Positions 25,543 through 41,638 of a stretch of 64,000 nucleotides of DNA are shown one piece after another (positions within the stretch are counted from its first letter, which is position 1; each line of letters begins with the position of its first letter). This DNA is from Shewanella colwelliana ATCC 39565. Its GTDB lineage: Bacteria > Pseudomonadota > Gammaproteobacteria > Enterobacterales > Shewanellaceae. Position numbers and translations under genes: made by a program. The stretch spans positions 62,001 through 126,000 of the forward strand of contig NZ_JAEC01000007.1 of assembly GCF_000518705.1 (NCBI RefSeq), read 5' to 3'. The notes under the pieces are model-generated. The model searched no databases. It was not told the DNA's origin and was given only the letters and a program-made list of their open reading frames with translations.

Positions 25543-26574
25543 TTAATTGTGTTTGACTAAATCGGGGGCCGATGACGAGTCTCTAATCACTGGCTCTGGT
25601 ATAAACACCTGATCTGTTAGGTTGTCTTCACTTTTACTTTGTTTGGCAATGAGCAGTTCAGTGGCAATTTGTGCAATTTTTTGGTTCGGTTGATGTACGG
25701 TGGTGAGTTTTGGCCAAGTTTGTCTCGAAAATGGACTATCTTCAAAACCAACAATAGAGAGTTCAGCTGGAATTTGTACACCTTCTAATCTGGCGGCAAA
25801 AAGTGCCCCCGCGGCTATTTCATCGTTACAGGCTACAATCGCTGTCGGTTTGTTTGAGTTGCTAAGTAAACTCTTTGCTCCGCTCACACCAGATTCAAAT
25901 GAATATTCACCACTGATTATATATTTTTCATCTACATTGAGTTGATTCGCTAGCATAGCCTGCCGGAATCCAGCTAGGCGCTCTTTAGTCGATTCGTGTT
26001 GATGATCACCAGCGAGAAAAGCGATCTCCTTGTGGCCTAAATCAATTAAGTGCTGCGTGATTGAGATGGCGCCATGCTTATCGTTCACCAATACCGATAG
26101 TCCGCCATGTTGATCGGCTGCTTCGCCAGCAATAATTCGCACGTAATTGGCGTTAATTTTATCTAATGCGGCAAGTACATTCGGGTCTTCAGATAGTGGT
26201 GGAGTAAGTACCAGCCCTGATAGCCTTGCATGACGAACCAGATCGACAAGTTCCTCACAGATGCTATCTGATTTAGCATCACATGGATGGATCAGCAGCT
26301 CATAACCTCGCTGCTTGCAGGAGGATAAAATACCGTTTTGCATATCAATGACATAGTAAGCATTAGGGTTGTCATAAACAAATGCGATGACATAGGATTT
26401 AGTGCCTGCTAAATTTCTTGCTGCCACATTGGGTTGGTAGTTTAATGCCGCAATAGCTTCATTGACTTTGTCGATAGTGGTTTGTCTTACTGAAGGCTCT
26501 TTATTGGTCACTCTAGAGACCGTTTTTATGGATACTCCAGCATGCTTTGCGACATCATTAATGGTTACTTTCAT
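25543..26574 (-). CDS. nagR: LacI-family regulator NagR of the GlcNAc regulon
   Basis: Transcriptional repressor of 343 residues. The N-terminal HTH reads TINDVAKHAGVSIKTVSRVTNKE, followed by the hinge YQPNVAARNLAGTKS and a periplasmic-binding-protein-like sensor domain (SIVGFEDSPFSRQTWPKLTTVHQP). In Shewanella the NagR of this position is a LacI-type protein controlling GlcNAc and chitin-sugar genes, unlike the ROK-type NagC of E. coli. Five matching operators lie in the next 16 kb. The ATG at 26574 has no strong Shine-Dalgarno sequence. No clear operator was seen close to its own start, so autoregulation is doubtful unless the receptor's site serves both. Confidence 0.9.
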   Translation of the reverse strand: MKVTINDVAKHAGVSIKTVSRVTNKEPSVRQTTIDKVNEAIAALNYQPNVAARNLAGTKSYVIAFVYDNPNAYYVIDMQNGILSSCKQRGYELLIHPCDAKSDSICEELVDLVRHARLSGLVLTPPLSEDPNVLAALDKINANYVRIIAGEAADQHGGLSVLVNDKHGAISITQHLIDLGHKEIAFLAGDHQHESTKERLAGFRQAMLANQLNVDEKYIISGEYSFESGVSGAKSLLSNSNKPTAIVACNDEIAAGALFAARLEGVQIPAELSIVGFEDSPFSRQTWPKLTTVHQPNQKIAQIATELLIAKQSKSEDNLTDQVFIPEPVIRDSSSAPDLVKHN

Positions 26575-26922: not shown

Positions 26923-26940
26923 CATGACAGCGTTGTCATT
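26923..26940. promoter_or_regulatory. NagR operator before the TonB receptor gene
   Basis: CATGACAGCGTTGTCATT is a near-perfect palindrome (ATGACA-N4-TGTCAT) that recurs before other genes of this cluster. It lies 62 bases upstream of the receptor ATG. By chance its ATG is in frame with the receptor, which lengthens the open frame but is not the translation start. Confidence 0.85.
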
Positions 26941-27001
26941 CCTGATTGAAGGAATGGGCATGGAAAATAAAACGATAATAAAGTTATGGAAGGGAAACGA
27001 G

Positions 27002-29599
27002 ATGCGACCATCTACTTTTAAGAAAAGTGTACTAGCTACAAATATTGCGTTACTCATGAGTGGTGCAATGTCTGTTTCTGCTATTGCAGCAGAGGCAGAA
27101 GCCGTCAATACAGATAATATCGAAAAAATCGAAGTGCGCGGTATCCGTGCCTCACAACAGGCGAACTTAAATGCCAAGCGTTTCTCTGATGGTACCGTTG
27201 ATGCCATTACTGCAGAAGATATTGGTAAGTTCCCTGATAAAAACGTTGCTGAATCTCTGCAGCGTATTCCAGGTGTCACCATTCAGCGCCAATTTGGCGA
27301 AGGTGCAGGTGTATCGATCCGTGGTGCTGGGCAAGACTTGACCCTTACAACACTTAACGGCCAGAACGTAGCGTCTACTGGCTGGTTTGTTCTGGAGCCT
27401 GCCAAGCGTTCCTTTAACTACGAGCTTCTTCCTTCTGAGTTGGTTGGTGACCTCGAAGTTTACAAATCTTCACAAGCCGATATCGCTGAAGGTGGTGTGG
27501 GTGGTACGGTAATCGTTAACACTCGTAAGCCTCTCGATATGGACTCACTCTCTTTCTACGGGTCTGTAGAAGGTCAGTACCAATCAGATTCTGAAGAAAC
27601 CGACCCACAATTCTCAGGTCTTGCTAGCTGGAAGAATGATTCTGAAACATTCGGTGTTTTAGTCTCTGGCGTATTGCAAGAGCGTAGCCTGCAGCGCCAA
27701 GGTAATGAAGCGTTTTGGGAGTGGGGTGCAGGCCCTGTTGCATTTGAGCAAGAGCGTGAGCGTTCAGCGCTAACCGCAACTTTCCAATATGCACCAACAG
27801 ACGAATTAAACTTTGTTTTCAATGCGATGGATATGCAAATGAAAGCAAATAACACTAACTATGCTTTATGGTTAACGCAAGCTGATACCTCATGGGGTGG
27901 CGGCGTTACTGAAGAGTGGTTAGGTCAAACGACTGACGCTGACGGAAACATTACCAACCAAGGTACTCAGGTTAAAGGTCCGCTAAATGTAGCATATTGG
28001 CAGGCTCGTCCTCGTGAAGCGACCATGAAGTCACAAGTATTCGATTTAAAAATGGAATACGCGGGTAACGGTTATGACTTTAGTGCGCAAATCGGTGATA
28101 CCACTTCATCTGGTGGTACTGATTTTGAAATGGTTGTAGATGACGGAACTGGTGGTACACCAATTCCTGGCGGAAGCTACGACTTTACCGGTGGCGGACA
28201 AACTTGGGATACAAATGGCTTCGATATGGCCACTTATGATCCAGGTTCATTGACTATGGGTACAGGTTCAAACTTCAACCGTACGCCAAAAACTGATGAT
28301 GAAACCTATGCACAAGCTGATATCAAGTTTGACGTTGATTGGGGCGTAATCGATTCAGTTAAGACTGGTATTAAGTATGCTAAACACAATACGACCAGCC
28401 GTAAGTTTGAATATGAGCAAGATGCAAACTTCGATACACGTATTTCAACTGCGGATATTGGCGCTGGTACCATTGATGTTGGTGCAGGTGATTACCAAAT
28501 CGCTAAGTTCGATCCAGAAGCGCTTAAAGCGTGGGCACGTAGCAGCATAACTGGTGAGCATGAGGACCTTGGCTCTTACAGTGAAATCGAAGAAGATAAC
28601 TATGCTGCTTATGTGATGGCAAATTTCTCTGGCGACGGTATTCGCGGTAACTTCGGTGTACGTTATGCAGGTACTAATGCATCTTCAACCTACTATGTTG
28701 AAGGCAAGAAAACCTCTACTGATGCCGATTATGCTGAATGGCTACCAAGCTTAAACGTTGCTTTTGACCTTGCTGACGATGTCATTATGCGTGCTTCTGC
28801 TGCCCGTGTTATGGCTCGTCCGCAATATGTTGATATGTACGTTAACCCAAATGTATTGGGTGCTAATGACGATACACCAAACAACCAATACTGGGTGACA
28901 GGTAATATCGGTCTTAAGCCTTTTGTGGCTAACCAAATTGATCTTGGTATCGAATGGTATTTCAACTCTGATTCACTAGTATCTGCTGCACTATTTATGA
29001 AGGATGTTAAAAACTTCGTAACCATTAGTGAGTACCATGCTACGTCAGATGAAATTGATTTCCCTCTGCCACCTGATGAAGCTGCTAATGGCTGGACTGT
29101 TCAAGAGAAGAACAACGGTAAGTCTGCACTCATTCAAGGTTTAGAGCTTCAGTATCAACAAGATTACGGTAATGGTTTCGGCTCTGTTGTTAACTATACC
29201 TACACAGATACAGAAACAGATGCTGATACGTTCACCGATGGAAATCCATTCCTCAGTGATAGCTCTAAGCATTCTTATAACTTAACTGGTTACTTTGAAA
29301 ACGAACTATTCCAAGTGCGTCTTGCGTACAACTGGCGTAGTGAGTACATGTTACGTGAGTCTGGTTCATACGGTAACCGTCTACACGAAGACTACGGTAG
29401 CTTAGATTTAAGTGCTACTTGGCATGTAACTGAAAACATCGATATCAAACTTGATGGTAATAACTTACTTGAAGAGTCTTCTAAGCAATTTGGTAATAAC
29501 CAAAATCCAACTAGCTATAGCGGCTTCGTCGAAGGTTTCCCATTGTATGAATATGAAATGGCTCGCCGCATAACATTAGGTGCAAGTTTCAGATTCTAA
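27002..29599 (+). CDS. TonB-dependent outer membrane receptor, chitin-sugar type
   Basis: Outer membrane active transporter of 865 residues. A long signal peptide (MRPSTFKKSVLATNIALLMS ... SAIAA) is followed by a plug domain (IRASQQANLNAKR, DAITAEDIGKFPDKNVAESL, GVTIQRQFGEGAGVSIRGAG) and a 22-strand barrel ending ITLGASFRF with the terminal Phe needed for insertion. The plug style is that of the carbohydrate receptors of Alteromonadales and Caulobacter. Position next to nagR and a NagR operator indicates chitooligosaccharides or GlcNAc as substrate. I chose the ATG at 27002, after GGAAGGGAAACGAG; the longer frame begins inside the operator. Confidence 0.9.
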   Translation: MRPSTFKKSVLATNIALLMSGAMSVSAIAAEAEAVNTDNIEKIEVRGIRASQQANLNAKRFSDGTVDAITAEDIGKFPDKNVAESLQRIPGVTIQRQFGEGAGVSIRGAGQDLTLTTLNGQNVASTGWFVLEPAKRSFNYELLPSELVGDLEVYKSSQADIAEGGVGGTVIVNTRKPLDMDSLSFYGSVEGQYQSDSEETDPQFSGLASWKNDSETFGVLVSGVLQERSLQRQGNEAFWEWGAGPVAFEQERERSALTATFQYAPTDELNFVFNAMDMQMKANNTNYALWLTQADTSWGGGVTEEWLGQTTDADGNITNQGTQVKGPLNVAYWQARPREATMKSQVFDLKMEYAGNGYDFSAQIGDTTSSGGTDFEMVVDDGTGGTPIPGGSYDFTGGGQTWDTNGFDMATYDPGSLTMGTGSNFNRTPKTDDETYAQADIKFDVDWGVIDSVKTGIKYAKHNTTSRKFEYEQDANFDTRISTADIGAGTIDVGAGDYQIAKFDPEALKAWARSSITGEHEDLGSYSEIEEDNYAAYVMANFSGDGIRGNFGVRYAGTNASSTYYVEGKKTSTDADYAEWLPSLNVAFDLADDVIMRASAARVMARPQYVDMYVNPNVLGANDDTPNNQYWVTGNIGLKPFVANQIDLGIEWYFNSDSLVSAALFMKDVKNFVTISEYHATSDEIDFPLPPDEAANGWTVQEKNNGKSALIQGLELQYQQDYGNGFGSVVNYTYTDTETDADTFTDGNPFLSDSSKHSYNLTGYFENELFQVRLAYNWRSEYMLRESGSYGNRLHEDYGSLDLSATWHVTENIDIKLDGNNLLEESSKQFGNNQNPTSYSGFVEGFPLYEYEMARRITLGASFRF

Positions 29600-29700: not shown

Positions 29701-30399
29701 ATGTCAAATCAAATAACCCTGTTAGATCCAAGTAAACATGCAGACCTAAAAATTGGTAATGCCGATTTTAATCATCTAGCCGAACAGCACATCTTACCTA
29801 TCTCTTTACATGAATTTGCCCGTGCTGCGACCGAATACCCCATTGTCTTTGTTAAGAATGCTGAAACTGGTGAGTTTCAGGCTGTTGTTATGCTTGGTTT
29901 AAAACCAGGGCAAAACTTAAGTGTGGCTGAAGGCCTGTGGTTGGGCCAATATGTGCCTAACGTGGCAAAAGATTATCCGTTGGGTGTCGTGCTTAATGCC
30001 GATCAACCAGATAAAATTTGGATCGGTATTCGCGAGAATTGTCCACAAGTGGGCACAGAAAAGGGTGAAGCACTGTTTGCTAATGGCGAAGAAACACCTT
30101 TTTTCACTCAGCGCCGTGAAGCGATTGTCAGGCACTTCGAAGAAGACCAAGCCAGTAAGGCGATTTTACAACTCTTAGCGAAAAAAGAGTTGTTCGTGCA
30201 GCAAGCACTTACCATCAATGTCAATGGTGAGCAGCGCAACATTAACGGTCTGTACATGATCAGTGAGGCCAAGCTTAATGAACTGTCAGATGAAGACTTT
30301 CTCGACTTACGCAAGCGTGGTTTGTTGGGCCCTATTTATGGTCACCTAACTTCACAACATCAGGTACACCGTCTAGCTCGCGCAGAGGCGTCAGCGTAA
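29701..30399 (+). CDS. SapC-family protein
   Basis: Cytoplasmic-looking protein of 232 residues with no signal peptide or membrane segment. It matches the SapC family (PF07277), first named from the Campylobacter S-layer locus: LNHLA-like NADFNHLAEQHILPISLHEF, EYPIVFVKNAETGEFQAVVMLGL, and a C-terminal EAKLNELSDEDFLDLRKRGLLGPIYGHL cut by short loops. Such genes often lie between TonB receptors and tryptophan-halogenase-like genes in sugar loci of marine bacteria; the function is unknown. It lies 101 bases after the receptor, behind a terminator, and 32 bases before the halogenase-like gene, so it probably forms an operon with the latter. AAGGA lies 11 bases before the ATG. Confidence 0.82.
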   Translation: MSNQITLLDPSKHADLKIGNADFNHLAEQHILPISLHEFARAATEYPIVFVKNAETGEFQAVVMLGLKPGQNLSVAEGLWLGQYVPNVAKDYPLGVVLNADQPDKIWIGIRENCPQVGTEKGEALFANGEETPFFTQRREAIVRHFEEDQASKAILQLLAKKELFVQQALTINVNGEQRNINGLYMISEAKLNELSDEDFLDLRKRGLLGPIYGHLTSQHQVHRLARAEASA

Positions 30400-30431: not shown

Positions 30432-31988
30432 ATGTCTGATAATAGTAAGCGGCCGATGAAAGTGCTAATTGTTGGCGGTGGTACAGCGGGATGGTTGGCC
30501 GCCAACCATCTAGGCAAGAAGTTTTCAGCATCAGAGGGTCTCAGTGTTGAGGTCACGCTAATCGAAAGCCCTAACATTCCTAATATTGGCGTGGGTGAGG
30601 GCACAGTTCCAATGATGCGCGATACATTGCGTTATTTGGGGATTGATGAAGGCGACTTTATACGCCAAACCGATGCGACCTTTAAACAGAGCATTAAGTT
30701 TATTAACTGGACTGATAATCCACAGCCAGATAATCCCACCTATTATCACCACCTATTCGACTATCCTAAATGGGACAATTCAGCGTTGATGTGGCTGAAC
30801 GAGTCGGCAGAATCGACCAGCTACGCAAACAGTGTCTCCCCTCAAGGTTACTTTGCTGACTTGGGCTTAGGGCCTAAGACGATGACCCAACCTCAGTATC
30901 AAGGTGAAACGAGCTACGCTTATCATCTTGATGCCAATAAATTCTCAGTATTATTGCGTGACAATGCGGTTAAACGTTTTGGTGTTAGTCATATCCTTGA
31001 TGATGTCACGGATGTGCTGGTGGATGATGCGAAACAGATTCAGTCTGTAACAACAGTTAACCATGGGGTATTAGAAGCCGATCTTTATGTTGACTGCACC
31101 GGGTTTAGTGCGCGCTTAATCGAGCAAGCCTGCGAGGTGCCCTTTGTTGATAAGGGCGATGTGCTGTTTGTCGATACAGCGCTTGCAGTACAAGTGCCTT
31201 ACGAGCAAAGTGATACGCCAATTCCCTGCTTTACGCTGTCAACAGCACAAGAGGCGGGCTGGATTTGGGACATAGGTTTAACCGAGCGTAGGGGGGTAGG
31301 TTATGTCTACTCGAGTCGTCATAGTACTCAAGCTGAGGCTGAGCAGGTCTTAAGGAAGTATTTAGGTACAGCGGGCGATAAGTTAGCGTTGCGCAAGATT
31401 GAAATGCGTATTGGCTATAGAGAACGCGCTTGGCATCAAAACTGTGTCGCCATCGGGTTATCAGCTGGGTTTGTTGAACCACTTGAGGCGACGGGGTTAC
31501 TGGTCTTTGATGTGACATCAAGAATGCTTGCTGAGTGCTTTCCTGCACATCGCGATGCCATGCCATTAGTTGCTGAGCAGTTTAACCGGCGGATCACCCA
31601 CACATGGGATAAAGTGATTGATTTTATTAAGCTGCATTATGTGGCATCTAAAAGAAGTGATAGCCAATTTTGGTTAGATAATCGGCAAACTAACACCATC
31701 CCTGAGTCGCTGCAGCAAAAGTTGGCTTTATGGCGCTATCAACTGCCTAGCCGATATGAGTTTGCCTCTACCATGGAGATCTTTAATTTAGAAAACTATC
31801 TCTATGTTCTATATGGAATGGACTTTGACACTGACATTGCACCTTGGACAGTAACCGATGCGCAGCAATCTAAATACCAAGCTCAACAAGCTCAGTTGCA
31901 GCAATATGTCCAAGCGGCACGTAAACAACTACTGCCGCATAGGGAGTTGATTGCACGTATTAAGCAGTATGGTATTTCTAAGGTGTAG
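30432..31988 (+). CDS. Tryptophan-halogenase-like flavoprotein (copy 1)
   Basis: FAD-dependent protein of 518 residues in the tryptophan halogenase family (PF04820). The nucleotide motif is VLIVGGGTAGWLAANHL. Lys85 (DATFKQSIKF) and Glu352 (FVEPLEATG) correspond to the catalytic Lys79 and Glu346 of PrnA with the same spacing. The halogenase WxWxIP motif is altered to WIWDIG (277-282), so the last Pro is missing. This makes true halogenation uncertain. The context is a GlcNAc locus, not a natural-product cluster. AGGAGA lies 8 bases before the ATG at 30432. A paralogue converges on it from the other strand. Confidence 0.85.
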   Translation: MSDNSKRPMKVLIVGGGTAGWLAANHLGKKFSASEGLSVEVTLIESPNIPNIGVGEGTVPMMRDTLRYLGIDEGDFIRQTDATFKQSIKFINWTDNPQPDNPTYYHHLFDYPKWDNSALMWLNESAESTSYANSVSPQGYFADLGLGPKTMTQPQYQGETSYAYHLDANKFSVLLRDNAVKRFGVSHILDDVTDVLVDDAKQIQSVTTVNHGVLEADLYVDCTGFSARLIEQACEVPFVDKGDVLFVDTALAVQVPYEQSDTPIPCFTLSTAQEAGWIWDIGLTERRGVGYVYSSRHSTQAEAEQVLRKYLGTAGDKLALRKIEMRIGYRERAWHQNCVAIGLSAGFVEPLEATGLLVFDVTSRMLAECFPAHRDAMPLVAEQFNRRITHTWDKVIDFIKLHYVASKRSDSQFWLDNRQTNTIPESLQQKLALWRYQLPSRYEFASTMEIFNLENYLYVLYGMDFDTDIAPWTVTDAQQSKYQAQQAQLQQYVQAARKQLLPHRELIARIKQYGISKV

Positions 31989-32007
31989 CGCCACACATAT
32001 TTTCGGC

Positions 32008-32039
32008 AACAAAAAACCGCCAATAGGCGGTTTTTTGTT
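32008..32039. terminator. Bidirectional terminator between the two halogenase-like genes
   Basis: A perfect 14-bp stem AACAAAAAACCGCC with loop AATA has T-runs on both strands between converging genes. Confidence 0.9.
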
Positions 32040-32049
32040 TTGAGCGTGT

Positions 32050-33561
32050 TTACTTTGCCAGTTTAGCTAAAAAGGCCTCATGAGACATTGATGCATCAAG
32101 TGCTTGCTGTTGCTGTGCTTTAAGCCGAGCAAGCGTTGCGGTGAGCGCTTCTCTGGTTGTTGGTAGGGTAATGGCGGGAACATGGTCCATGCCGTACAAT
32201 ACAAAGCGGTAGTTCTCATCGGTAAAAATCGTATTGAAGCTGCCTGCTAAATCCATATATTCGCAGGTTTTATGTTTCCATATATCGATTCTGTCTTGTA
32301 GCCCTTTGGCATACTTTGCGGTCTTTGCCGCTTCCCTCCAAAACTCAGTATCGTCTCGGTCGGTTAAACAGTAATGGAGAATGATAAACTGACGTAAATC
32401 TTCATAAACGCCATTTAAGGTGCGGTTATAGGAGTCTCTTACTGCCTGAGGTGGATTTGCGCTTGAAAGGTGGGTGGCCAGTAAGCGAGCGCCAACATTA
32501 ACGATATGCAACCCTGTCGATTCTAATGGTTCGATAAACCCACCAGACAGTCCAATTGCAATACAGTTACCAACCCAAAACGCTTTGCGGCAACCAATGC
32601 GCATATCTAAATGTACGGTACGTAGGATCTCTAATTCATCACCTAAGTGTGCCCTTAACTCAGCTTCAGCTTGCTCTTTTGTTAAGCGATTACCGTCGTA
32701 AACATAGCCTGTCCCTTGGCGGTTTGACAGATCTATCTCCCAAACCCAGCCGTTGCTTAATGCGGTAGCAACAGTGTAAGACTTAGGCGGCATGTCTTGC
32801 GGGTATTTACGTTGAATCGCCACCGCTTTATTGCAGGGTAACTCTTTTTCAAATGATTGCCAGTTATCGCTGCGCAGTTTCTCAATTAGCAAGCCTTTAA
32901 AACCCGTACAATCAATAAAAATGTCTGAGCTAAACTCTCCCTTTGGGGTGGTCACTGAGGTGATGCTCTCGCCATCGGTGTTGACATCAGTGACTATGCT
33001 TTCCACATGAATCACTCCCGCTTCGCAAGCTTTCTTTCTGAGGTATCGACCCATCAACGTTGCATCGAGGTGATAACCGTAAGGTACTACACCTTGGTAG
33101 GGCGGAGAATTAGGGGCTTTAGGGCAACGTTGATGTTTTATCAGTTCAGCCGAGATGCTGGTGGCATCAGCATAGCTTAACTCTGCCTCAGGACTGTGGA
33201 CCCAAGTACTGGCGTTGTCGATGGGGCCCAATGGGCGTTGTTGCTCAAAGGGGTGAAAATATTCATGGGTGTTGCCGACTTTAGGTTTCATCCAGTTACG
33301 AAACATAATGCCACTTTTTAGTGTTGCATTAGTTTCTCTAAGTAACTCAGCCTCATCAAGTCCCATTGCTGCGAAAAAGAAGCGAATAGTGTGTACGGTT
33401 GCTTCACCCACGCCTATGGTGCCGATATCTTGGCTTTCTATTAGGGTGATTTTAACATCGCCACCAGATTGATTATAAAGCTTTTGCAGGTACATTGCGG
33501 TCATCCAACCCGAACTTCCACCGCCGACAATTGTAATTGAATTGATTGGTTTATCGCTCAT
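32050..33561 (-). CDS. Tryptophan-halogenase-like flavoprotein (copy 2)
   Basis: Protein of 503 residues and the same family as copy 1. The FAD motif is ITIVGGGSSGWMTAMYL. Lys82 (NATLKSGIMF) and the PLE glutamate (FIEPLESTG) are kept, and GTGYVYDG matches GVGYVYSS in copy 1. The WxWxIP motif reads WVWEID. It is diverged from copy 1, so this is not a recent duplication. It starts 9 bases after the TauE/SafE permease gene on the same strand, with AGAGGT before the ATG, and so belongs to a two-gene operon behind NagR operators. The substrate is unknown; oxidation or modification of a chitin-derived compound is a guess. Confidence 0.85.
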   Translation of the reverse strand: MSDKPINSITIVGGGSSGWMTAMYLQKLYNQSGGDVKITLIESQDIGTIGVGEATVHTIRFFFAAMGLDEAELLRETNATLKSGIMFRNWMKPKVGNTHEYFHPFEQQRPLGPIDNASTWVHSPEAELSYADATSISAELIKHQRCPKAPNSPPYQGVVPYGYHLDATLMGRYLRKKACEAGVIHVESIVTDVNTDGESITSVTTPKGEFSSDIFIDCTGFKGLLIEKLRSDNWQSFEKELPCNKAVAIQRKYPQDMPPKSYTVATALSNGWVWEIDLSNRQGTGYVYDGNRLTKEQAEAELRAHLGDELEILRTVHLDMRIGCRKAFWVGNCIAIGLSGGFIEPLESTGLHIVNVGARLLATHLSSANPPQAVRDSYNRTLNGVYEDLRQFIILHYCLTDRDDTEFWREAAKTAKYAKGLQDRIDIWKHKTCEYMDLAGSFNTIFTDENYRFVLYGMDHVPAITLPTTREALTATLARLKAQQQQALDASMSHEAFLAKLAK

Positions 33562-33570
33562 GGTGACCTC

Positions 33571-34467
33571 TTACTGAATGAGTAACATTGCAACCCCAGA
33601 TAATATAATCCAGCTTGCAAAAAATAATTTTAATCGTTTAACAGGCAGATATAGAGCCAATTTTTTAGCCAGTATGCCGCCGATCACAGTACCTGGCCCT
33701 GCAAATAGAACTACATTAAAATAGGCATCGCTGTGCTCGCCAAAGTGGATGAAACTTGTTGTCCACACCGTCATGGCGGTCACAATGACGCCTGTGGCAA
33801 CGGCGAGGGTGGGGTCGACTCGTCTTAGCATGAGATAGATCACGATGATTTCGCCGACGCCTACCGATAGCCAAGCGGTAATGATTCCACCGAGATAAGT
33901 AAATACGCCGAGTATGACGAGTTCTAATGAGCCGAGGCGACGGTAGCAGGCGTTGGGTTTTAGTTTGCTACTGCTATAGATTATCGCTAGCCCCAATATA
34001 ATCGAAAACAGGCTAAAGCTATGTTCTAAGGTACTGGGGGGCGGAAGCTCAAATGTTAACGTCGTCCATAGTCCCATGATTGATAGCGGAGTGCATAGTA
34101 AAAGGAGTGTTGGCAACTGAGACCATAGGTTTGATGTTTGCTGCAAAGTTTTATAGTGGTGTCGCCAGGTCAATGCACCGGCTGTCATACCAAAGCATTG
34201 AATAGCGAAAGAGGTGGCAATGCTTTGCTCTGCTGAAAAAGAGAGGTTATTAAACACAGGGATAAAGATAACACCACCGCCGGCACCTGTGGCGTTGGCG
34301 AAAATAGCGCCCGTTATGCCGAGCAGACTGTACTGCAAGTAATTACTTAATAGCCCAAAGGTGTCTGGATAGCGTGATAGCCAAATCCCCCACATTGTAA
34401 TGAGCAGCAGAATCAGCACTTGGTATTTAGCTGGAAGTTGTTTTATTTTCGCAATTGTTTTAATCAT
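33571..34467 (-). CDS. TauE/SafE-family membrane permease
   Basis: Inner membrane protein of about 298 residues with eight to nine predicted helices, in the family of sulfite/sulfoacetate exporters TauE/SafE. Typical features are the duplicated glycine-rich helices (GAIFANATGAGGGVIFIPVF and YLGGIITAWLSVGVGEIIVIYLM). The substrate cannot be read from sequence. The start is uncertain: I chose the ATG at 34467 (MIKTIAKIKQ), because the longer frame from 34548 begins inside a NagR operator; neither has a clear Shine-Dalgarno sequence. The gene is followed 9 bases later by halogenase-like copy 2, and the pair appears to be NagR-controlled. Confidence 0.8.
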   Translation of the reverse strand: MIKTIAKIKQLPAKYQVLILLLITMWGIWLSRYPDTFGLLSNYLQYSLLGITGAIFANATGAGGGVIFIPVFNNLSFSAEQSIATSFAIQCFGMTAGALTWRHHYKTLQQTSNLWSQLPTLLLLCTPLSIMGLWTTLTFELPPPSTLEHSFSLFSIILGLAIIYSSSKLKPNACYRRLGSLELVILGVFTYLGGIITAWLSVGVGEIIVIYLMLRRVDPTLAVATGVIVTAMTVWTTSFIHFGEHSDAYFNVVLFAGPGTVIGGILAKKLALYLPVKRLKLFFASWIILSGVAMLLIQ

Positions 34468-34532
34468 TAGGCTAGATAGTAATCGTTTTCTGCATGTGTG
34501 CCTATCGAATTTAGCTAGGATGTTACCAGTTG

Positions 34533-34548
34533 TTGACAGCGTTGTCAT
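34533..34548. promoter_or_regulatory. NagR operator near the permease gene
   Basis: TTGACAGCGTTGTCAT matches the operator with one mismatch in the left arm. It lies 66 bases upstream of the chosen permease start, and on that strand its ATG opens the longer frame. Confidence 0.78.
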
Positions 34549-34683
34549 TTGTTCGATTTTGGACGTTAGTGCGCGCTTACTTGCGAGGGGCTAACATTGA
34601 GGCTTGGAAGTTTTTCGCTCAAAATAAATTCTGTTTTTTGTCAAAAAAATGTAGATATTCTGTTCGTGCTTGTGTATGTTTGC

Positions 34684-34703
34684 AAATGACAGCGTTGTCA
34701 TTT
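34684..34703. promoter_or_regulatory. NagR operator between the permease and hex genes
   Basis: AAATGACAGCGTTGTCATTT is the most symmetrical copy; the arms GCAAATGACA / TGTCATTTGC extend over 34682-34705. Its centre is 153 bases from that of the other operator, so looping between them is possible. It may act on the leftward permease operon, on a rightward transcript, or both. Confidence 0.88.
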
Positions 34704-35334: not shown

Positions 35335-37983
35335 ATGAATAGAAATCTTGTGGCAGTCGCGGTATTGGTTTTGCTGGGAGGCACAGCATGCAGTAAGTCA
35401 GTACCTACTTCGGTTGACGATCCTTCAAGTGCACAGTCACTTTCTCAGGCGACTTTAACAAGCATTGGTCATTCGTTAGCCATCACTTACCGTACCGTTA
35501 CCAATTATCCTGAACAGTGCACGACTTCAGGTGTTGATGGCCGCTGTTTTCAGGCGCAAATAGAGCTATTGTCTCCCATCGACATTAAAGATAACAACTG
35601 GTCTATCTATTTCAGTCAGATGCGCCCCGTTAAACAGGTGTTATCTAAAGAGTTCTCCATTTCCCATATAAAAGGCGATCTGCATAAGATTAGCCCAACC
35701 GATGCGTTCACAGGCATTAAGCAGAATGAAGCAAAGGTGATCGATTTTCTTGGTGAGCTCTGGCAGTTATCTGAAACGGATGCAATGCCGAACTATTACA
35801 TTGTTGCCGATGGACTTGAACCTGTGGTGATAAAAAGCACCATGGTTGGCAAAGATGCCGAAACAGGGATGGAGTTGCGTCCCTATGTTGAATCGTTTAC
35901 CGATGCAAGGACTCAATATCGTCGCAGCGTCACAGATCAATTGCAGTGGGCAAAACCTGAAGTGCTCTTCCAAGCCAATCAAGGGGTAGATATTCAACCA
36001 GAATTAGCCATTGATACCATTATTCCAACGCCACAAATGCAAACGGTTACCTCAACAGGTAGACCCGTGTCACTCAGCGACGGTTATGTGTTGGCCTTAG
36101 GTAATGTTGAGCGCATAAAGGTCGAAGCGGCGTTGAATCGTCTAGCGCGTTTGGGCGTGAAAGCCTCTGAAACTGGCGTGTCATTAAGTTTGTTGCCGGC
36201 AGACACTCAACTAGCTGTTGGTGGTTATGAGTTAATGGTCGATGTGAAAGGGATTGTAATTAAAGCGTCTGATGATGCTGGCTACTCCTACGGATTGTCA
36301 TCGTTAGCCAGTTTGGTAAGTCTTAATGACTTAACACTTAATACCATGACCATTACCGATGCCCCACGCTACGATTTCCGAGGTATGCATGTGGATGTCG
36401 CACGCAACTTCCACAGTAAACAGTTTGTGTTAAATCTGCTGGATCAAATGGCGGCTTATAAGCTGAATAAACTGCATCTACATATGGCTGACGATGAGGG
36501 CTGGCGCCTTGAAATTGATGGCCTGCCAGAGTTAACCGATATAGGGAGTAAGCGCTGTCACGATCTCAATGAAGATACCTGCCTGTTACCGCAACTGGGC
36601 AGTGGACCAAATGCCAATGCTAAGGTTGATGGTTACTACAGCAAAGCCGATTATATCGAGATATTACGCTATGCAAGTGCGCGCCAAATTCAAGTGATCC
36701 CGTCGATGGATATGCCTGGTCACTCGCGCGCTGCAATCAAAGCGATGGAAGCACGTTACCGTTCATTGAGTGCAAAGGGGGATGAGGCTGCTGCGCAGGA
36801 GTATCGTCTAATCGACCCAGAGGACAAAACAAAGTATGCCTCTATTCAATACTATGATGACAACACGCTTAACGTGTGCATGGAATCAACGTTCCACTTT
36901 GTAGACAAAGTGATTAATGAGATTGCCGCGTTACATCATCAAGCCGGGCAGCCATTAAACGTGTACCACATTGGGGCCGATGAAACTGCGGGAGCATGGA
37001 TTGAATCGCCAATCTGCCAAGCATTCTTGCAAAATAATGAGCATGGCGTGAGCGATGAGAAAGAGTATGGCGCGTATTTTATTGAACGAGTTTCAAACCT
37101 ACTGGCCGAGAAAGGGATAGAAGCAGCTGGTTGGAGTGATGGTATGAGCCACACTCGTCCAGAGCGTATGCCTGAAATTAACCAGAGCAATATTTGGGAT
37201 GTCGTATCGCATGATGGGTTTAAACGTGCCCATAGCCAAGCTAACTTAGGTTGGGATGCGGTATTGAGTAACCCTGAGGTACTTTACTTTGATTTTCCCT
37301 ATGAGGCCGACCCTAAAGAGCATGGTTATTATTGGGCTAGCAGAGCGAGCAACGAGCGACATCTGTATAGCTTTATGTCGGCTAACTTACCGGCTAACGC
37401 AGAACAATGGACCGACATTGAAGGACGCCCATTTGAGGCGGATGACACTATTAAGTTAGATAAAGCGGGCAAACAGGTTAGCGGACCACTGGCAAAGAAT
37501 GTTCAGTTTACTGGCATCCAAGGACAGATATGGAGCGAGACCATTCGTAGTGACGATGTTGTCGAATACATGGTTTTTCCAAGGTTATTAGTGTTGGCTG
37601 AACGCGCTTGGCATCAGGCGGATTGGGAGGTGCAATACAATTATCAAGGCGCTATTTACAATCAAGACAGTGGTTACTTTACCCAAGATATGCGTGCAAA
37701 ACAGGCCGAGCAATGGGCGCAGTTTGCTAATACTTTAGGGCATAAAGAGTTGCTCAAGCTAGATCGTGCCAATATCGCCTACCGTGTGCCAACGGTCGGT
37801 GCACATATTCACGAAGGCAGCTTATACACCAATGTTATCTATCCTGGCTTAGCAGTGGAGTACCGTGTCAATGGTGGACAATGGCAACCTTACAGTAAGA
37901 CGGTAAAAGTTAATGGTAAGGTTGAAGTTCGCGCTGTGGCGGCAGATGGTCTGCGTAAAGGGCGAAGTTTGTTCGTTAACTAA
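35335..37983 (+). CDS. hex: Beta-N-acetylhexosaminidase (GH20), predicted lipoprotein
   Basis: Removes GlcNAc from the non-reducing end of chitooligosaccharides; 882 residues. The lipoprotein signal ends at LLGGTAC (Cys19 region), so it is anchored to the cell envelope. An N-terminal CHB_HEX domain (about 40-190) and a GH20b domain (about 225-345) precede the catalytic barrel from YDFRGMHVDVARNFHS. The catalytic pair Asp549-Glu550 lies in HIGADETAGAW, and WGRQ-type residues appear as GIQGQIWSE. A C-terminal CHB_HEX_C domain ends the protein. AGAGGAATGTA precedes the ATG. It lies within the NagR cluster and supplies GlcNAc to NagP and NagK. Confidence 0.95.
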   Translation: MNRNLVAVAVLVLLGGTACSKSVPTSVDDPSSAQSLSQATLTSIGHSLAITYRTVTNYPEQCTTSGVDGRCFQAQIELLSPIDIKDNNWSIYFSQMRPVKQVLSKEFSISHIKGDLHKISPTDAFTGIKQNEAKVIDFLGELWQLSETDAMPNYYIVADGLEPVVIKSTMVGKDAETGMELRPYVESFTDARTQYRRSVTDQLQWAKPEVLFQANQGVDIQPELAIDTIIPTPQMQTVTSTGRPVSLSDGYVLALGNVERIKVEAALNRLARLGVKASETGVSLSLLPADTQLAVGGYELMVDVKGIVIKASDDAGYSYGLSSLASLVSLNDLTLNTMTITDAPRYDFRGMHVDVARNFHSKQFVLNLLDQMAAYKLNKLHLHMADDEGWRLEIDGLPELTDIGSKRCHDLNEDTCLLPQLGSGPNANAKVDGYYSKADYIEILRYASARQIQVIPSMDMPGHSRAAIKAMEARYRSLSAKGDEAAAQEYRLIDPEDKTKYASIQYYDDNTLNVCMESTFHFVDKVINEIAALHHQAGQPLNVYHIGADETAGAWIESPICQAFLQNNEHGVSDEKEYGAYFIERVSNLLAEKGIEAAGWSDGMSHTRPERMPEINQSNIWDVVSHDGFKRAHSQANLGWDAVLSNPEVLYFDFPYEADPKEHGYYWASRASNERHLYSFMSANLPANAEQWTDIEGRPFEADDTIKLDKAGKQVSGPLAKNVQFTGIQGQIWSETIRSDDVVEYMVFPRLLVLAERAWHQADWEVQYNYQGAIYNQDSGYFTQDMRAKQAEQWAQFANTLGHKELLKLDRANIAYRVPTVGAHIHEGSLYTNVIYPGLAVEYRVNGGQWQPYSKTVKVNGKVEVRAVAADGLRKGRSLFVN

Positions 37984-38098
37984 CAGCTAGTTAATATTGA
38001 GGCGGCCGTTAACTTATTGATTAGCAGCCTCTTTGGCCCCTGTCGTTGGCAGCAATGAGTTAGCTCTCAGCTAAAAAACAACAGTGATGAAAATATAA

Positions 38099-38114
38099 AT
38101 GACAACGCTGTCAT
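38099..38114. promoter_or_regulatory. NagR operator before nagK
   Basis: ATGACAACGCTGTCAT is the operator with an inverted centre (ACGC instead of GCGT). The symmetrical arms extend to ATAAATGACA / TGTCATTTAT (38095-38118). It lies 94 bases upstream of the nagK start and should control nagK-nagA and probably nagX. Confidence 0.88.
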
Positions 38115-38208
38115 TTATATTGTAACATAGAGTTAACTTAATTCAGTAGACAGGGCAAAGAGTGTTACCTCATTGCTCTGGATAATAGAACTGTGGAAGA
38201 GGTCGGTC

Positions 38209-39108
38209 ATGGGATTAAACCAGGCAAAGGAAACCCCCCTATTTATTGGCATCGACGGTGGCGGAAGTAAATGTCGTGCAACCATCTATGCTAGCGACGA
38301 TACCGTCATTGGTACCGGCGTTGCTGGGCGGGCTAACCCGCTTCATGGCTTAGCGCAAACTTTCGAGTCGATTCAGCAGTCTACTGAACTTGCACTAAGA
38401 GATGCTGGATTAACAGTTGGTGATAGCAAGCTGCTCATAGCCGGATTGGGTTTAGCTGGGGTGAATGTGCCACGCCTACATCAAGATATTAGCAATTGGG
38501 CTCATCCATTCGCCAAAATGTATGTCACCACTGATCTGCATACTGCCTGCATTGGTGCCCATCGTGGCGGTGATGGTGCCGTGATCATCACAGGAACGGG
38601 CTCCTGCGGCTATGCACATGTTGGCGAGAGTCATCTGTGTCTTGGTGGTCATGGTTTTGCATTGGGTGATAAGGGCAGTGGCGCTTGGTTAGGATTAAAG
38701 GCTGCCGAGCAAGTGTTATTGCACCTCGACGGATTCGCCCCCGCAACAGCGCTCACAGAGCGCTTGCTTAATCATTTTAATGTGCACGATGCGATGGGCA
38801 TTGTTGAACACTTAGCTGGTAAGTCTTCAAGTTGCTATGCAAGCTTAGCGAGGCTGGTGCTTGAGTGCGCCAATGAGCAAGACGCGGTGGCTAAAGCGAT
38901 TGTCGTGGAAGGCGCTGCATATATTAGCGAGCTTGCCCGTAAACTGTTTAAAGTAGCCCCACCAAGATTTTCAATGATAGGTGGGCTTGCTGAGCCATTG
39001 GCAGCATGGTTAGATACCGATGTTGTTAGCAAAATCTCTCCAATTTTAGCGCCACCAGAGTTGGGTGCCGTATATTATGCAAGGCAACAGCTAGCTATAG
39101 GTAATTAA
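38209..39108 (+). CDS. nagK: N-acetylglucosamine kinase (BadF/BadG ATPase family)
   Basis: Phosphorylates GlcNAc to GlcNAc-6-P in the cytoplasm; 299 residues. The ATPase core has the phosphate-1 loop IGIDGGGSKCRATIY, the phosphate-2 segment VIITGTGSCGYAH, GGHGFALGDKGSGAWLG and the adenosine-site MIGGLAEPL. This family replaces the ROK-type kinase in Shewanella. I chose the ATG at 38209 (MGLNQAKETP), after GAGGTCGGTC; the frame stays open to a TTG at 38173. It is followed 75 bases later by nagA, the next enzyme in the pathway. Confidence 0.9.
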   Translation: MGLNQAKETPLFIGIDGGGSKCRATIYASDDTVIGTGVAGRANPLHGLAQTFESIQQSTELALRDAGLTVGDSKLLIAGLGLAGVNVPRLHQDISNWAHPFAKMYVTTDLHTACIGAHRGGDGAVIITGTGSCGYAHVGESHLCLGGHGFALGDKGSGAWLGLKAAEQVLLHLDGFAPATALTERLLNHFNVHDAMGIVEHLAGKSSSCYASLARLVLECANEQDAVAKAIVVEGAAYISELARKLFKVAPPRFSMIGGLAEPLAAWLDTDVVSKISPILAPPELGAVYYARQQLAIGN

Positions 39109-39183
39109 TAAAACCTTCGGGAAATACTGTCCACTGTAATCCTTTATGCTGTAAATGCTTAAAGGGGATTAGGAAAGAGAGTG

Positions 39184-40317
39184 ATGAAACAAACCTTGAT
39201 CGCAGAACAGGTATTTGATGGTGAAAAATTTCATCGTGAACTACCAATCACCTTTGAAGATGGCCGAATAGTTGCCTTTGACTGTGTCGCAGGTGTGACG
39301 CCACAGCAAGTGAGCGGCACACTAGTACCAGGGTTTATCGATGTGCAAGTCAATGGTGGAGGCGGTGCATTGTTAAATGCTGACCGCAGCGTTAAGTGTA
39401 TTGAAACGATAGGTAAGGCGCACGCACAGTTTGGCACCACAGGGTTTCTTCCCACGCTGATTACCGACAATATTGATGTGATGCAAACTGCCGCTGATGC
39501 AGTTGCTAAAGCGATTGATGTGGGGGCTTCTGGAGTACTTGGAGTTCATTTCGAAGGTCCACATCTTTCAGTCCCCCAAAAAGGTGTTCATCCTCAATCG
39601 CATATTCGCCGCATTTCAGATGCGGAATTAGCGATTTTTTGTCGCAAAGATTTAGGCACTAAAGTGGTTACTCTTGCACCAGAAAACGTATCTGTAGAGG
39701 TTATTAAAGCCTTAGTGGCAGAGGATGTAAGGGTTTGCTTGGGTCATTCAAATGCCGATTATGAAACGGTTGTGGCAGCGTTAGAGGCGGGGGCGACAGG
39801 CTTTACTCATCTGTTTAATGCCATGTCGCCAATGGGCTCGCGGGATCCTGGTATGGTTGGTGCGGCGATTGAAAGTCGGGATGCATGGTGTGGTCTGATT
39901 GTGGATGGCCATCATGTTCATGCTGCATCGGCGAAAGTCGCGATTTACGCAAAACCACGAGGTAAGGTGATGTTGGTCACTGATGCCATGCCACCCGTTG
40001 GCATGGCACAAGATGCGAGCTTTGAGCTATTTGGCACCCAGGTCGTTCGCCAAGGAGACCGGCTCAATGCGGTAACGGGAGAGTTAGCTGGTTGTGTACT
40101 CGACATGGTTGGCGCTGTAAACAATAGCGTTAATATGCTTGGTTTATCTTTGGATGAAGCGTTACGAATGGCGGCATTGTACCCTGCGCAGTTTCTTGGC
40201 CATGAGGCTACACGTGGGGCGTTTACGTTAGGTTGCCAGGCGGATATGGTGCTGCTTGACCAACACAGCCGTGTGGCGCGTACCTATATAGGCGGTGCGC
40301 TGGTCTATGAAGCCTAA
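39184..40317 (+). CDS. nagA: N-acetylglucosamine-6-phosphate deacetylase
   Basis: Converts GlcNAc-6-P to glucosamine-6-P and acetate; 377 residues. Metal and catalytic residues are Glu124 (HFEGPH), His188 (LGHSNA), His209 (THLFNAM) and the catalytic Asp267 (VTDAM). PGFIDVQVNGGGG marks the N-terminal barrel entry. I chose the ATG at 39184, after AGGAAAGAGAG; a GTG directly before it is in frame. In other Shewanella nagB-II lies between nagK and nagA; here only 75 bases separate them and no deaminase is seen. Confidence 0.96.
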   Translation: MKQTLIAEQVFDGEKFHRELPITFEDGRIVAFDCVAGVTPQQVSGTLVPGFIDVQVNGGGGALLNADRSVKCIETIGKAHAQFGTTGFLPTLITDNIDVMQTAADAVAKAIDVGASGVLGVHFEGPHLSVPQKGVHPQSHIRRISDAELAIFCRKDLGTKVVTLAPENVSVEVIKALVAEDVRVCLGHSNADYETVVAALEAGATGFTHLFNAMSPMGSRDPGMVGAAIESRDAWCGLIVDGHHVHAASAKVAIYAKPRGKVMLVTDAMPPVGMAQDASFELFGTQVVRQGDRLNAVTGELAGCVLDMVGAVNNSVNMLGLSLDEALRMAALYPAQFLGHEATRGAFTLGCQADMVLLDQHSRVARTYIGGALVYEA

Positions 40318-40398: not shown

Positions 40399-41535
40399 AT
40401 GGATGCAAACCAACCAAAAATCAGCAAGCCTAGGTTGATGTCACTCGATGCGCTGCGTGGTTTTGATATGTTTTGGATCTTAGGAGGCGAAGCACTGTTT
40501 GTTGGCTTATTGGCTTGGACTGGTTGGCACGGGTGGCAAATTGCTGATGCACAGATGAAACACAGCGTATGGCATGGTTTCACGTTCTATGATCTTATTT
40601 TTCCGTTATTTATTTTCTTGTCTGGTGTCGCTTTGGGTTTATCACCCAAGCGGTTAGATAAACTTCCTATGTCAGCACGCTTGCCTCTCTATCGTCATTC
40701 ATTTAAGCGATTGGGCTTGCTGTTAATTTTTGGTGTACTTTATAACCATGGTTGGGGTGTTGGCGCACCAGCTGCCGCTGACGAACTACGTTATGCCAGC
40801 GTATTAGGACGTATTGCTTTCGCTTGGTTTTTTGCTGCCATGTTAGTTTGGCACACAGCTTTACGTACGCAGATTATTATCGCTATTTTGATATTAGTGG
40901 GTTATGCGTTTTTGCAGTTATTCATGCCTGTACCCGGTGGCGTAGCGGGTGACTTGTCGATGGCAGGCTCAATCAACGCTTATGTGGACAGTCACCTCTT
41001 ACCCGGCATTAGCTACCAAGGTCAACCTACCGATCCTGAAGGTGTTTTATCGACCTTACCAGCTGTCGTGAATGCCCTCGCGGGGGTATTTACAGGGCAT
41101 TTTATTGTTAAGCAACACCCTAAAGGGGATTGGGTTAAAGTCGGTATATTGATGCTAGCTGGTGCAGCTGTATTGGCGATCGGTTGGCTGTGCGACGGTT
41201 TCTTACCTGTCAATAAGGACCTTTGGACCAGCTCATTTGTGTTGGTGACGACGGGTTGGAGCCTATTATTACTTGGTGTTTTTTATGCCTTGATTGATGT
41301 GCTTAAACTACAACGTTTGGCATTTGTTTTTGTGGTAATTGGCTGCAATGCGATCATTATCTATTTGGCATCGAGTCTAGTAAATTGGAGCTATGTCGCT
41401 CGCAGTATATTTGGTGGTTTTATCCAAGCGTTGCCTGAGTCTATGCACCTTTTGGCGGGTACTCTTGCACTGTTAACCGTGCAGTGGTTGTTACTCTATT
41501 GGATGTATAAACGTAACATATTCATTAAGGTTTAA
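40399..41535 (+). CDS. nagX: NagX, acyltransferase-3-like membrane protein
   Basis: Inner membrane protein of 378 residues with about ten helices, similar to the DUF5009 / heparan-alpha-glucosaminide N-acetyltransferase group. The N-terminus RLMSLDALRGFDMFWILGGE, with HGFTFYDLIFPLFIFLSGVA, is the family hallmark. NagX is required in Shewanella-type GlcNAc loci, and its biochemical role is not firmly known; it may transport or transacetylate amino sugars. AGGAATCGTTTAA precedes the ATG. It lies between nagA and nagP, and a hairpin that includes a NagR operator follows it. Confidence 0.9.
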   Translation: MDANQPKISKPRLMSLDALRGFDMFWILGGEALFVGLLAWTGWHGWQIADAQMKHSVWHGFTFYDLIFPLFIFLSGVALGLSPKRLDKLPMSARLPLYRHSFKRLGLLLIFGVLYNHGWGVGAPAAADELRYASVLGRIAFAWFFAAMLVWHTALRTQIIIAILILVGYAFLQLFMPVPGGVAGDLSMAGSINAYVDSHLLPGISYQGQPTDPEGVLSTLPAVVNALAGVFTGHFIVKQHPKGDWVKVGILMLAGAAVLAIGWLCDGFLPVNKDLWTSSFVLVTTGWSLLLLGVFYALIDVLKLQRLAFVFVVIGCNAIIIYLASSLVNWSYVARSIFGGFIQALPESMHLLAGTLALLTVQWLLLYWMYKRNIFIKV

Positions 41536-41600: not shown

Positions 41601-41638
41601 TAAAACCCAAAATGACAGCGTTGTCTTTTTGGGTTTTA
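41601..41638. promoter_or_regulatory. NagR operator nested in a long hairpin before nagP
   Basis: The operator core ATGACAGCGTTGTCTT (41612-41627, one mismatch) lies inside perfect arms TAAAACCCAAAA (41601-41612) and TTTTGGGTTTTA (41627-41638). As RNA this gives about 16 paired bases with one T-T mismatch and a GCGT loop. It sits 66 bases after nagX and about 150 bases before nagP, so it could be both a terminator-like hairpin for nagX and an operator for nagP. Confidence 0.8.

What the first reader, a model, noticed from the sequence alone, without database searches (positions are those of the whole stretch)
30432..33561. Two converging halogenase-like flavoproteins in a sugar locus, both lacking the WxWxIP proline
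Both proteins keep the FAD motif, the catalytic Lys (85 and 82) and the Glu of the PLE motif. Their WxWxIP motif reads WIWDIG and WVWEID. The site that handles HOCl seems intact, yet the motif thought to block ordinary monooxygenase activity is changed. In a GlcNAc locus the substrate is unlikely to be free tryptophan. They may oxidise or halogenate a chitin-related compound, or have a quite different flavin function.
Basis: partly seen in the sequence, partly recalled or inferred. Interest (0 to 1): 0.68.

Follow-up and report, generated by a model that had tools for sequence, protein, structure and literature searches.

The report
Halogenase-like enzymes paired with sugar receptors
Two real halogenase-family flavoproteins sit in a Shewanella chitin-sugar locus; their missing proline is a normal family variant, and the enzyme next to the outer-membrane sugar receptor travels with that receptor type, which points to a job at the receptor rather than on the sugar.

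Summary
Hal1 (30432-31988 +) and Hal2 (32050-33561 -) are full-length PF04820 flavoproteins with the FAD motif, the catalytic Lys (85, 82) and Glu (352, 347), and the motifs WIWDIG and WVWEID. The missing proline is a clade signature shared by solved relatives (2pyx WIWDIG, 9lu2 WIWDIA, 9ltb WLWDIA); Hal1-type proteins of Shewanella nag loci read WIWDIA 50, WIWDIP 12, WIWDIG 9 times. Lys and Glu are kept in 147 of 147 homologues. Both genes lie under copies of a palindrome that also precedes nagK, nagP and a nagB-like gene. A chitin-related substrate is not supported: Hal1 relatives lie within three genes of a TonB-dependent receptor in 78 of 80 loci, with various sugar genes, and across Shewanella nag loci receptor and Hal1 vary together (partial Mantel r 0.89, 43 loci), while GH20 and NagA do not follow the receptor and NagR hardly does (0.15). 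Ten of 88 informative nag loci lack a halogenase; eight of these keep a receptor 81-96% identical to one that has it. Best reading: receptor-dedicated, FDH-type flavoenzymes of unknown substrate, the receptor polypeptide or a receptor-bound compound being likelier than GlcNAc. No activity is shown.

The parts
25543..26574 (-). LacI-family regulator, NagR by position (divergent to the receptor operon)
   Evidence: Pfam LacI/Peripla_BP_3; homologue at E<=1e-110 in 89 of 117 genus genomes, with a TonB receptor next to it or one ORF away in all 89 loci looked at
26923..26940 (.). NagR-type operator of the receptor-SapC-Hal1 operon, CATGACAGCGTTGTCATT
   Evidence: overlaps the first ATG of the receptor ORF, so the receptor probably starts near 27002 (inference)
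26924..29599 (+). TonB-dependent receptor, TIGR01782 subfamily
29701..30399 (+). SapC family protein (PF07277), only copy found in the genome
   Evidence: model pLDDT 96 without PDB match
30432..31988 (+). Hal1, PF04820 flavoprotein, K85, E352, WIWDIG (listed ORF begins at TTG 30429)
32050..33561 (-). Hal2, PF04820 flavoprotein, K82, E347, WVWEID
33571..34548 (-). TauE/SafE family membrane protein (a transporter family), upstream of Hal2 in the same direction
34532..34549 (.). second, weaker operator at the TauE start (2 mismatches)
34685..34702 (.). operator between TauE-Hal2 and GH20, AATGACAGCGTTGTCATT
35335..37983 (+). GH20 beta-N-acetylhexosaminidase
38098..38115 (.). operator upstream of nagK
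38173..39108 (+). NagK GlcNAc kinase
   Evidence: NCBIfam NagK_SO3507
39181..40317 (+). NagA-type deacetylase
   Evidence: read from sequence and position; not scanned against a family library
40399..41535 (+). NagX
   Evidence: NCBIfam NagX_SO_3504
41611..41628 (.). operator upstream of nagP
41780..43084 (+). NagP GlcNAc transporter
   Evidence: NCBIfam NagP_SO3503

Best explanation
Hal1 and Hal2 are flavoenzymes of the halogenase family that serve one outer-membrane receptor. They share a regulon with it and Hal1 is inherited with it. Shown: family, fold (Hal2 model), conserved Lys/Glu pair, shared operator, association with receptors of various sugar loci, and Hal1 varying together with the receptor type. 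Inferred: a two-component cycle in which a general flavin reductase supplies FADH2, O2 and halide give a hypohalous (or other flavin-peroxide) oxidant, and Lys/Glu steer it to an electron-rich group. Inferred and weakest: the substrate is tied to the receptor, most likely aromatic side chains of the receptor polypeptide (or a receptor-bound compound) met in the cytoplasm before export, and not GlcNAc or chitobiose. Rough odds: receptor-dedicated 0.75; FDH-type chemistry 0.7; receptor polypeptide as substrate 0.28.
For: Lys and Glu 147 of 147. Two conserved clades distinct from Trp halogenases and from BrvH/Xcc4156. Hal2 fold matches PyrH and PrnA. Operators at both transcription units. Receptor within three genes of a halogenase in 78 of 80 named loci, SapC in 63. 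Hal1 identity averages 65% (lowest 53%) within a receptor type and 48% (highest 58%) between types; receptor-Hal1 partial Mantel given NagK 0.89, 0 of 2000 permutations, 43 loci; the same test gives GH20 0.04 (587 of 2000), NagA 0.08 (434), NagR 0.15 (79) although NagR is the immediate divergent neighbour. Each receptor type has its own halogenase set. No signal peptide is apparent in Hal1, Hal2 or SapC (sequence, by eye), so they should act in the cytoplasm.
Against: Ten nag loci have no halogenase, and PF04820 finds only weak hits in those genomes (best E between 3.4e-17 and 1.2e-9; at most 12 candidates scored per genome). In eight of these the receptor is 81-96% identical to one that has a halogenase (four of the eight look like one lineage), and no receptor residue tracks the loss. 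No aromatic receptor residue cleanly separates 87 halogenase- or SapC-adjacent receptors from 20 others. Co-transfer of an operon block could produce the coupling without a direct link, and Hal1 often directly follows the receptor gene. SapC also follows the receptor, though weakly (0.30, 0 of 2000). The Hal1 correlation uses only WxWDI proteins, so loci with other enzymes are outside it. No activity was measured.
Confidence: 0.45

Rival explanations
1. They are ordinary halogenases of a free aromatic small molecule (indole-like), as shown in vitro for BrvH and Xcc enzymes, and sit beside receptors because the receptor imports that aromatic compound, or TauE moves it across the inner membrane.
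For: Same fold and Lys/Glu site; BrvH of the sister clade brominates indole slowly in vitro (PMC5945002, passages); receptor coupling would also follow if the receptor brings the cargo; a TauE/SafE transporter-family gene lies directly upstream of Hal2.
Against: The receptor is in the GlcNAc regulon with NagP. TauE hardly follows the receptor type (56% within, 51% between, up to 97% between; 36 loci), so it would not bring a receptor-specific cargo. [quoted passage not shown] Unlabelled ORFs in many loci were not identified, so another transporter is not excluded.
Confidence: 0.27
2. One reading: they oxidise or halogenate GlcNAc, GlcN or a chitin oligosaccharide.
For: Co-regulation with nag genes; Hal2 orthologues seen only in nag loci, 11 of 11 regions.
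Against: Hal1 relatives are found with other sugar genes (58 of 80 loci have none of five nag gene families in view, though contigs often end early). In one genus, unchanged nag catabolic genes go with different halogenase sets. Ten nag loci have none. Electrophilic halogenation needs an electron-rich centre that GlcNAc lacks (established chemistry).
Confidence: 0.08
3. The proline-less enzymes are halide-independent flavin monooxygenases.
For: The motif was proposed to prevent monooxygenase activity (PMC5945002, passages); in Hal1 the residue next to the catalytic Glu is Ala, not Ser.
Against: Lys and Glu of the halogenation site are invariant; P, A and G occur among close relatives in the same loci.
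Confidence: 0.15
4. Non-catalytic flavin-binding partner or sensor of the receptor system.
For: Absent in ten nag loci; no flavin reductase among the ten locus proteins scanned with Pfam.
Against: Invariant catalytic pair in 147 of 147.
Confidence: 0.1

Closest known systems
2pyx (Shewanella frigidimarina), 9lu2 (Pseudoalteromonas sp. L11-2), 9ltb (Altererythrobacter sp. S1-5), solved 'tryptophan halogenases'
   Same: Same clade as Hal1 and no proline either (WIWDIG, WIWDIA, WLWDIA)
   Different: A search of the library by the entry codes found only a structural remark on 2pyx (PMC7336383, passages), no activity; gene context of these entries not examined
BrvH, Xcc4156, 9luq (indole brominase-like clade)
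   Same: Same fold and catalytic pair; some relatives also lie beside TonB receptors or SapC
   Different: Separate clade, keep WxWxIP; relatives also have Cupin_8 and DUF6445 neighbours
PrnA, RebH, PyrH, AbeH free-tryptophan halogenases
   Same: Fold, FAD motif, Lys, Glu
   Different: Different branch in the tree for those placed (PrnA, PyrH, AbeH); loop between FW and GM 57 residues in PrnA against 45 and 46 here (PyrH, AbeH and RebH not measured)
QhpG and LodB, flavoproteins needed for Trp-derived cofactors in a partner protein
   Same: Weak sequence match to Hal1; QhpG dihydroxylates a protein Trp and resembles FAD halogenases in structure (PMC7876137, passages, and abstract start)
   Different: Scores far under the curated cut-offs; not the same family

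Membership tests
Flavin-dependent halogenase family, Pfam PF04820 | full-length profile match | tested here: met
   426.5 and 404.3 bits, cut-off 21; profile 1-444 and 2-452 of 458
Flavin-dependent halogenase family, Pfam PF04820 | GxGxxG FAD motif | tested here: met
   GGGTAG and GGGSSG
Flavin-dependent halogenase family, Pfam PF04820 | catalytic Lys79 and Glu346 (PrnA numbers) | tested here: met
   K85/E352 and K82/E347; 147 of 147 homologues, window included
Flavin-dependent halogenase family, Pfam PF04820 | strict WxWxIP | tested here: not met
   WIWDIG, WVWEID; the relaxed WxWxI is met; P/A/G vary among close relatives
Flavin-dependent halogenase family, Pfam PF04820 | Fx.Px.Sx.G tunnel motif | tested here: inconclusive
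   Hal2 met (FIEPLESTG); Hal1 has Ala for Ser (FVEPLEATG)
Flavin-dependent halogenase family, Pfam PF04820 | halogenating activity | not testable with these tools
   needs enzyme assay
Free-tryptophan halogenases | falls in the PrnA/PyrH/AbeH branch | tested here: not met
   tree of 86 rows
Free-tryptophan halogenases | long substrate loop as in PrnA | tested here: not met
   45 and 46 residues against 57
BrvH/Xcc4156 indole brominase clade | falls in that clade | tested here: not met
   14-row clade at 100 without Hal1 or Hal2
QhpG/LodB protein-modifying flavoproteins | NCBIfam curated cut-off | tested here: not met
   Hal1: QhpG 37.9 bits against 240, LodB 27.3 against 400; Hal2: QhpG 31.7, LodB not listed

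The most novel reading that the evidence does not exclude
The halogenase-like enzymes are dedicated modifiers of their own TonB-dependent receptor: receptor and enzyme form an exchangeable pair, and the enzyme oxidises or halogenates receptor residues before export, tuning uptake or hiding the receptor from phages. SapC, Cupin_8, DUF6445 and TPR-sulfotransferase neighbours would be further parts of such receptor-tailoring sets.
Probability: 0.27. Interest if true: 0.85.

Novelty: new variant of a known kind. Interest (0 to 1): 0.55.

Why it matters
Proteins labelled 'tryptophan halogenase' occur in 108 of 117 genomes of this genus at the Pfam threshold, weak hits included, and such genes can be read as antibiotic genes, for example the Colwellia rebH/prnA transcripts in PMC11337851 (passages). 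Here such genes are shown in the same predicted regulon as a sugar receptor and, within one genus, varying with the receptor type and not with the sugar pathway. That turns 'what is the substrate of these orphan halogenases?' into a testable question: look at the receptor. Species with and without the enzyme but with receptors 81-96% identical give natural controls.

Tried and rejected
Lost proline as a sign of new chemistry: rejected, because P, A and G occur among related Hal1-type proteins of the same nag loci.

Chitin-specific substrate for Hal1: rejected on distribution and on receptor coupling.

A receptor residue that marks halogenase presence: none found. No column was >=90% in 78 receptors with a halogenase ORF (broken L275 counted) and <=30% in 9 without (L278 left out, the unlike receptor of L215 kept in). 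No clean aromatic contrast between 87 and 20 receptors (best F752, 0.87 against 0.25); many of the 20 come from loci with only about 1.5 kb of flank, so a halogenase further off would be missed, and two of the 87 rest on SapC alone.

SapC fold: no PDB match by Foldseek (E<=0.001: 0) or VIA-align (Z>=2: 0 of 998); this does not prove a new fold. DUF6445 profile against the PDB gave only chance hits, SapC none.

Halogenase remnants in 11 loci without one: tblastn (E<=1e-3) found none.

Literature: searches found no held paper with all their terms (tryptophan halogenase, TonB-dependent, SapC and/or GlcNAc); none of the 19 papers holds halogenase, SapC and TonB-dependent together; two searches gave listings cut at 40 of 163 and 15 of 35 without such a paper among those listed. 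Searches were about halogenases in other respects. Three likely papers (Xanthomonas and Shewanella GlcNAc work, recalled) are not held, so the gene association may well be in print elsewhere.

The search (a made-up generic 30-aa peptide) was of no use.

Full report
OBSERVATION. Both match PF04820 over nearly its whole length and are 37% identical to each other. The window lies in a 4.58-Mb genome. It belongs to the Shewanella group: genus member G002 has a contig of 520,193 bases, the length of a named S. oncorhynchi contig. A third PF04820 hit in the genome is weak (E 1.4e-10); the protein reads as a geranylgeranyl-reductase-like flavoprotein in another context (by eye).

THE MOTIF. I took 147 homologues of at least 400 aa, the two of the window included, from the window and the 113 loci then held, leaving out L001 and L002, which repeat the window. 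This set leans to Hal1: 80 loci were found with Hal1 (best 80 of 186) and 30 are top genus hits to PF04820. Lys and Glu are present in 147 of 147. Motifs ending in Asp-Ile-x: G 85, A 7, C 3, S 2, N 1, P 1 (99 in all). Motifs of the Hal2 kind, WxW(E/Q)ID: 13. The other 35 keep IP. In a tree of 86 rows, Hal1 falls in a 58-row clade (support 99) with 2pyx, 9lu2 and 9ltb, and Hal2 in a 10-row clade (100), both apart from the 14-row BrvH/Xcc4156/9luq clade (100) and from PrnA/PyrH/AbeH. The Hal1-type proteins of Shewanella nag loci read WIWDIA 50, WIWDIP 12, WIWDIG 9, WTWDIG 3, WVWDIA 3, WAWEIP 1 (second enzymes of a locus counted). On a tree with that residue masked, proline against non-proline needs two changes among 74 rows, and proline is nested among A and G. 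The proline is therefore a lineage-variable site, not a proven switch of function.

REGULATION. AATGACAnCGnTGTCATT occurs five times in the window with up to 3 mismatches (0.23 expected; 0 of 100 shuffles reach five). Sites lie at the receptor-SapC-Hal1 operon, twice before TauE-Hal2 (one of them facing GH20 too), before nagK and before nagP. Genome-wide there are eight places with up to 2 mismatches, against one for the reversed control; the five with at most one mismatch are four of the window sites plus one before a nagB-like gene (named by eye), and two of the three weaker ones lie elsewhere. A site at the receptor recurs in 20 of 26 further loci scanned (two pairs of these are the same locus); L040, L041, L045 and L065 show no site at this threshold, and L042 and L044 none at the receptor. 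NagR of Shewanella is described as a LacI-family repressor (PMC2996990, passages).

HAL2. A search with Hal2 itself found it in 7 of 117 genus genomes and in 7 of 295 order genomes, own genome and G040 counted in both; these are at least 57% identical, and three hits at 38-39% were set aside. All 11 regions fetched have Hal2 beside Hal1, with GH20 and NagK in view.

HAL1 AND RECEPTORS. Of 80 named loci, 78 have a TonB receptor within three genes of a halogenase (not seen in L090 and L107), 63 have SapC, 19 have two or more nag genes and 58 have none of five nag families in view; contigs often end early. Neighbour genes include beta-galactosidase, GH1, GH3, GH43, gluconate permease, sodium symporter and general sugar transporters (ten chosen proteins scanned each).

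THE NAG SLOT IN SHEWANELLA. I compared 89 loci found with NagR: the window, six fetched and 82 fetched. 78 have a halogenase ORF, 21 of the 89 have two full-length ones. Eleven have none: one (L278) ends at a contig edge and ten are absences in genomes with only weak PF04820 hits (at most 12 candidates scored per genome). In L275 the gene is broken in two. SapC is in 74 of 78 with and 3 of 11 without. The 88 receptors over 600 aa fall into seven types (60% identity, single linkage): type 1 (60 loci) WIWDIA or WVWDIA, four with a second enzyme, 10 with no intact one (among them L275 and L278); type 2 (10) WIWDIP; type 3 (7, the window) WIWDIG plus WxWEID; type 4 (5) WSWKIP plus WVWHIP, once WAWEIP plus WAWKIP; type 5 (3) WTWDIG plus WIWDIG or WIWDIA; type 6 (2) WIWDIP plus WIWDIA; and L215 alone, with none. 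Hal1 identity is 65% on average (lowest 53) within a receptor type and 48% (highest 58) between types; NagR 78 and 78, NagK 70 and 71, NagA 76 and 75, GH20 63 and 61, TauE 56 and 51, SapC 48 and 40, the last two reaching 97 between types. Only WxWDI proteins, the best match to Hal1 in each locus, entered the Hal1 figures (72 loci). Given NagK as a measure of descent, receptor and Hal1 correlate at 0.89 (43 loci, 0 of 2000 permutations), SapC 0.30 (46 loci, 0), NagR 0.15 (51 loci, 79), NagA 0.08 (31 loci, 434), GH20 0.04 (50 loci, 587). NagK was in view in 52 loci. Receptor and Hal1 thus appear to be exchanged together while the sugar pathway stays. Operon co-transfer explains part of this, but NagR, the divergent neighbour, hardly follows.

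HOW IT PROBABLY WORKS. Shown: family, catalytic pair, fold (Hal2), shared operator, receptor coupling. Inferred: FADH2 from a general reductase, a hypohalous or flavin-peroxide oxidant, Lys/Glu guidance. The enzymes have no apparent signal peptide, so the target should be in the cytoplasm. Because the nag catabolic genes do not differ with receptor type, GlcNAc is a poor candidate; a target tied to the receptor is better. Precedent for a related flavoprotein acting on a protein Trp is QhpG (PMC7876137, passages). Against: ten nag loci do without; in eight the receptor is 81-96% identical to ones with a halogenase (L258, L262, L263 and L267 look like one lineage; L215 carries a different receptor at 42%; that of L274 did not pass the length cut-off), and no receptor residue marks the difference.

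NEIGHBOURS. DUF6445 carries invariant H130, D132 and H223 and a nearly invariant R241, the pattern of 2-oxoglutarate-Fe(II) oxygenases (pattern recognised from memory, not confirmed by structure). A Cupin_8 protein lies beside a WQWRIP enzyme in L012. TPR-sulfotransferases lie beside the Hal pair in some non-Shewanella nag loci. TauE/SafE, a transporter family, precedes Hal2 in the window.

LIMITS. No enzymology. Open literature only, by passages and listings. Relatives are drawn from a sample that favours Hal1. Gene labels in the comparative scripts are best BLAST hits to window proteins, not curated calls, and many neighbour ORFs stay unidentified. Names such as NagR, NagA and NagB rest partly on recall and position.

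Noticed in passing
29701-30399 (SapC); alignment A1 of 58 sequences: SapC (PF07277) gives a very confident model (pLDDT 96) with no PDB match by two aligners; invariant E38, P47, K52, G57, P86, P93. It may be a new fold.
   Followed up: partly
L053:12299-13054, L085:9264-9977 and 35 others (alignment A2): DUF6445 (PF20043), named as of unknown function, has an HFD...H...R pattern like a 2-oxoglutarate-Fe(II) oxygenase and lies in 23 of 80 Hal1 loci.
   Followed up: partly
L043:11645-13261, L039:11546-12988: TPR plus Sulfotransfer_3 proteins lie beside the halogenase pair in non-Shewanella nag loci.
   Followed up: no
26924-27002: The first ATG of the receptor ORF overlaps the operator; the likely true start is the Met near 27002 (MRPSTFKKS).
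   Followed up: no
L275, L199, L273, L276: Natural losses: a halogenase gene broken in two (L275) and loci without it whose receptor is 93-96% identical to one with it.
   Followed up: partly
22754-22837: 27-bp tandem repeat, about three copies, in the 3' part of a 1200-aa ORF (19382-22984, PilY1-like by eye), encoding CEGEECPKP-type repeats.
   Followed up: no
PMC11337851 (passages): Colwellia rebH/prnA transcripts are read there as antibiotic genes; they could be receptor-linked enzymes of this kind.
   Followed up: no
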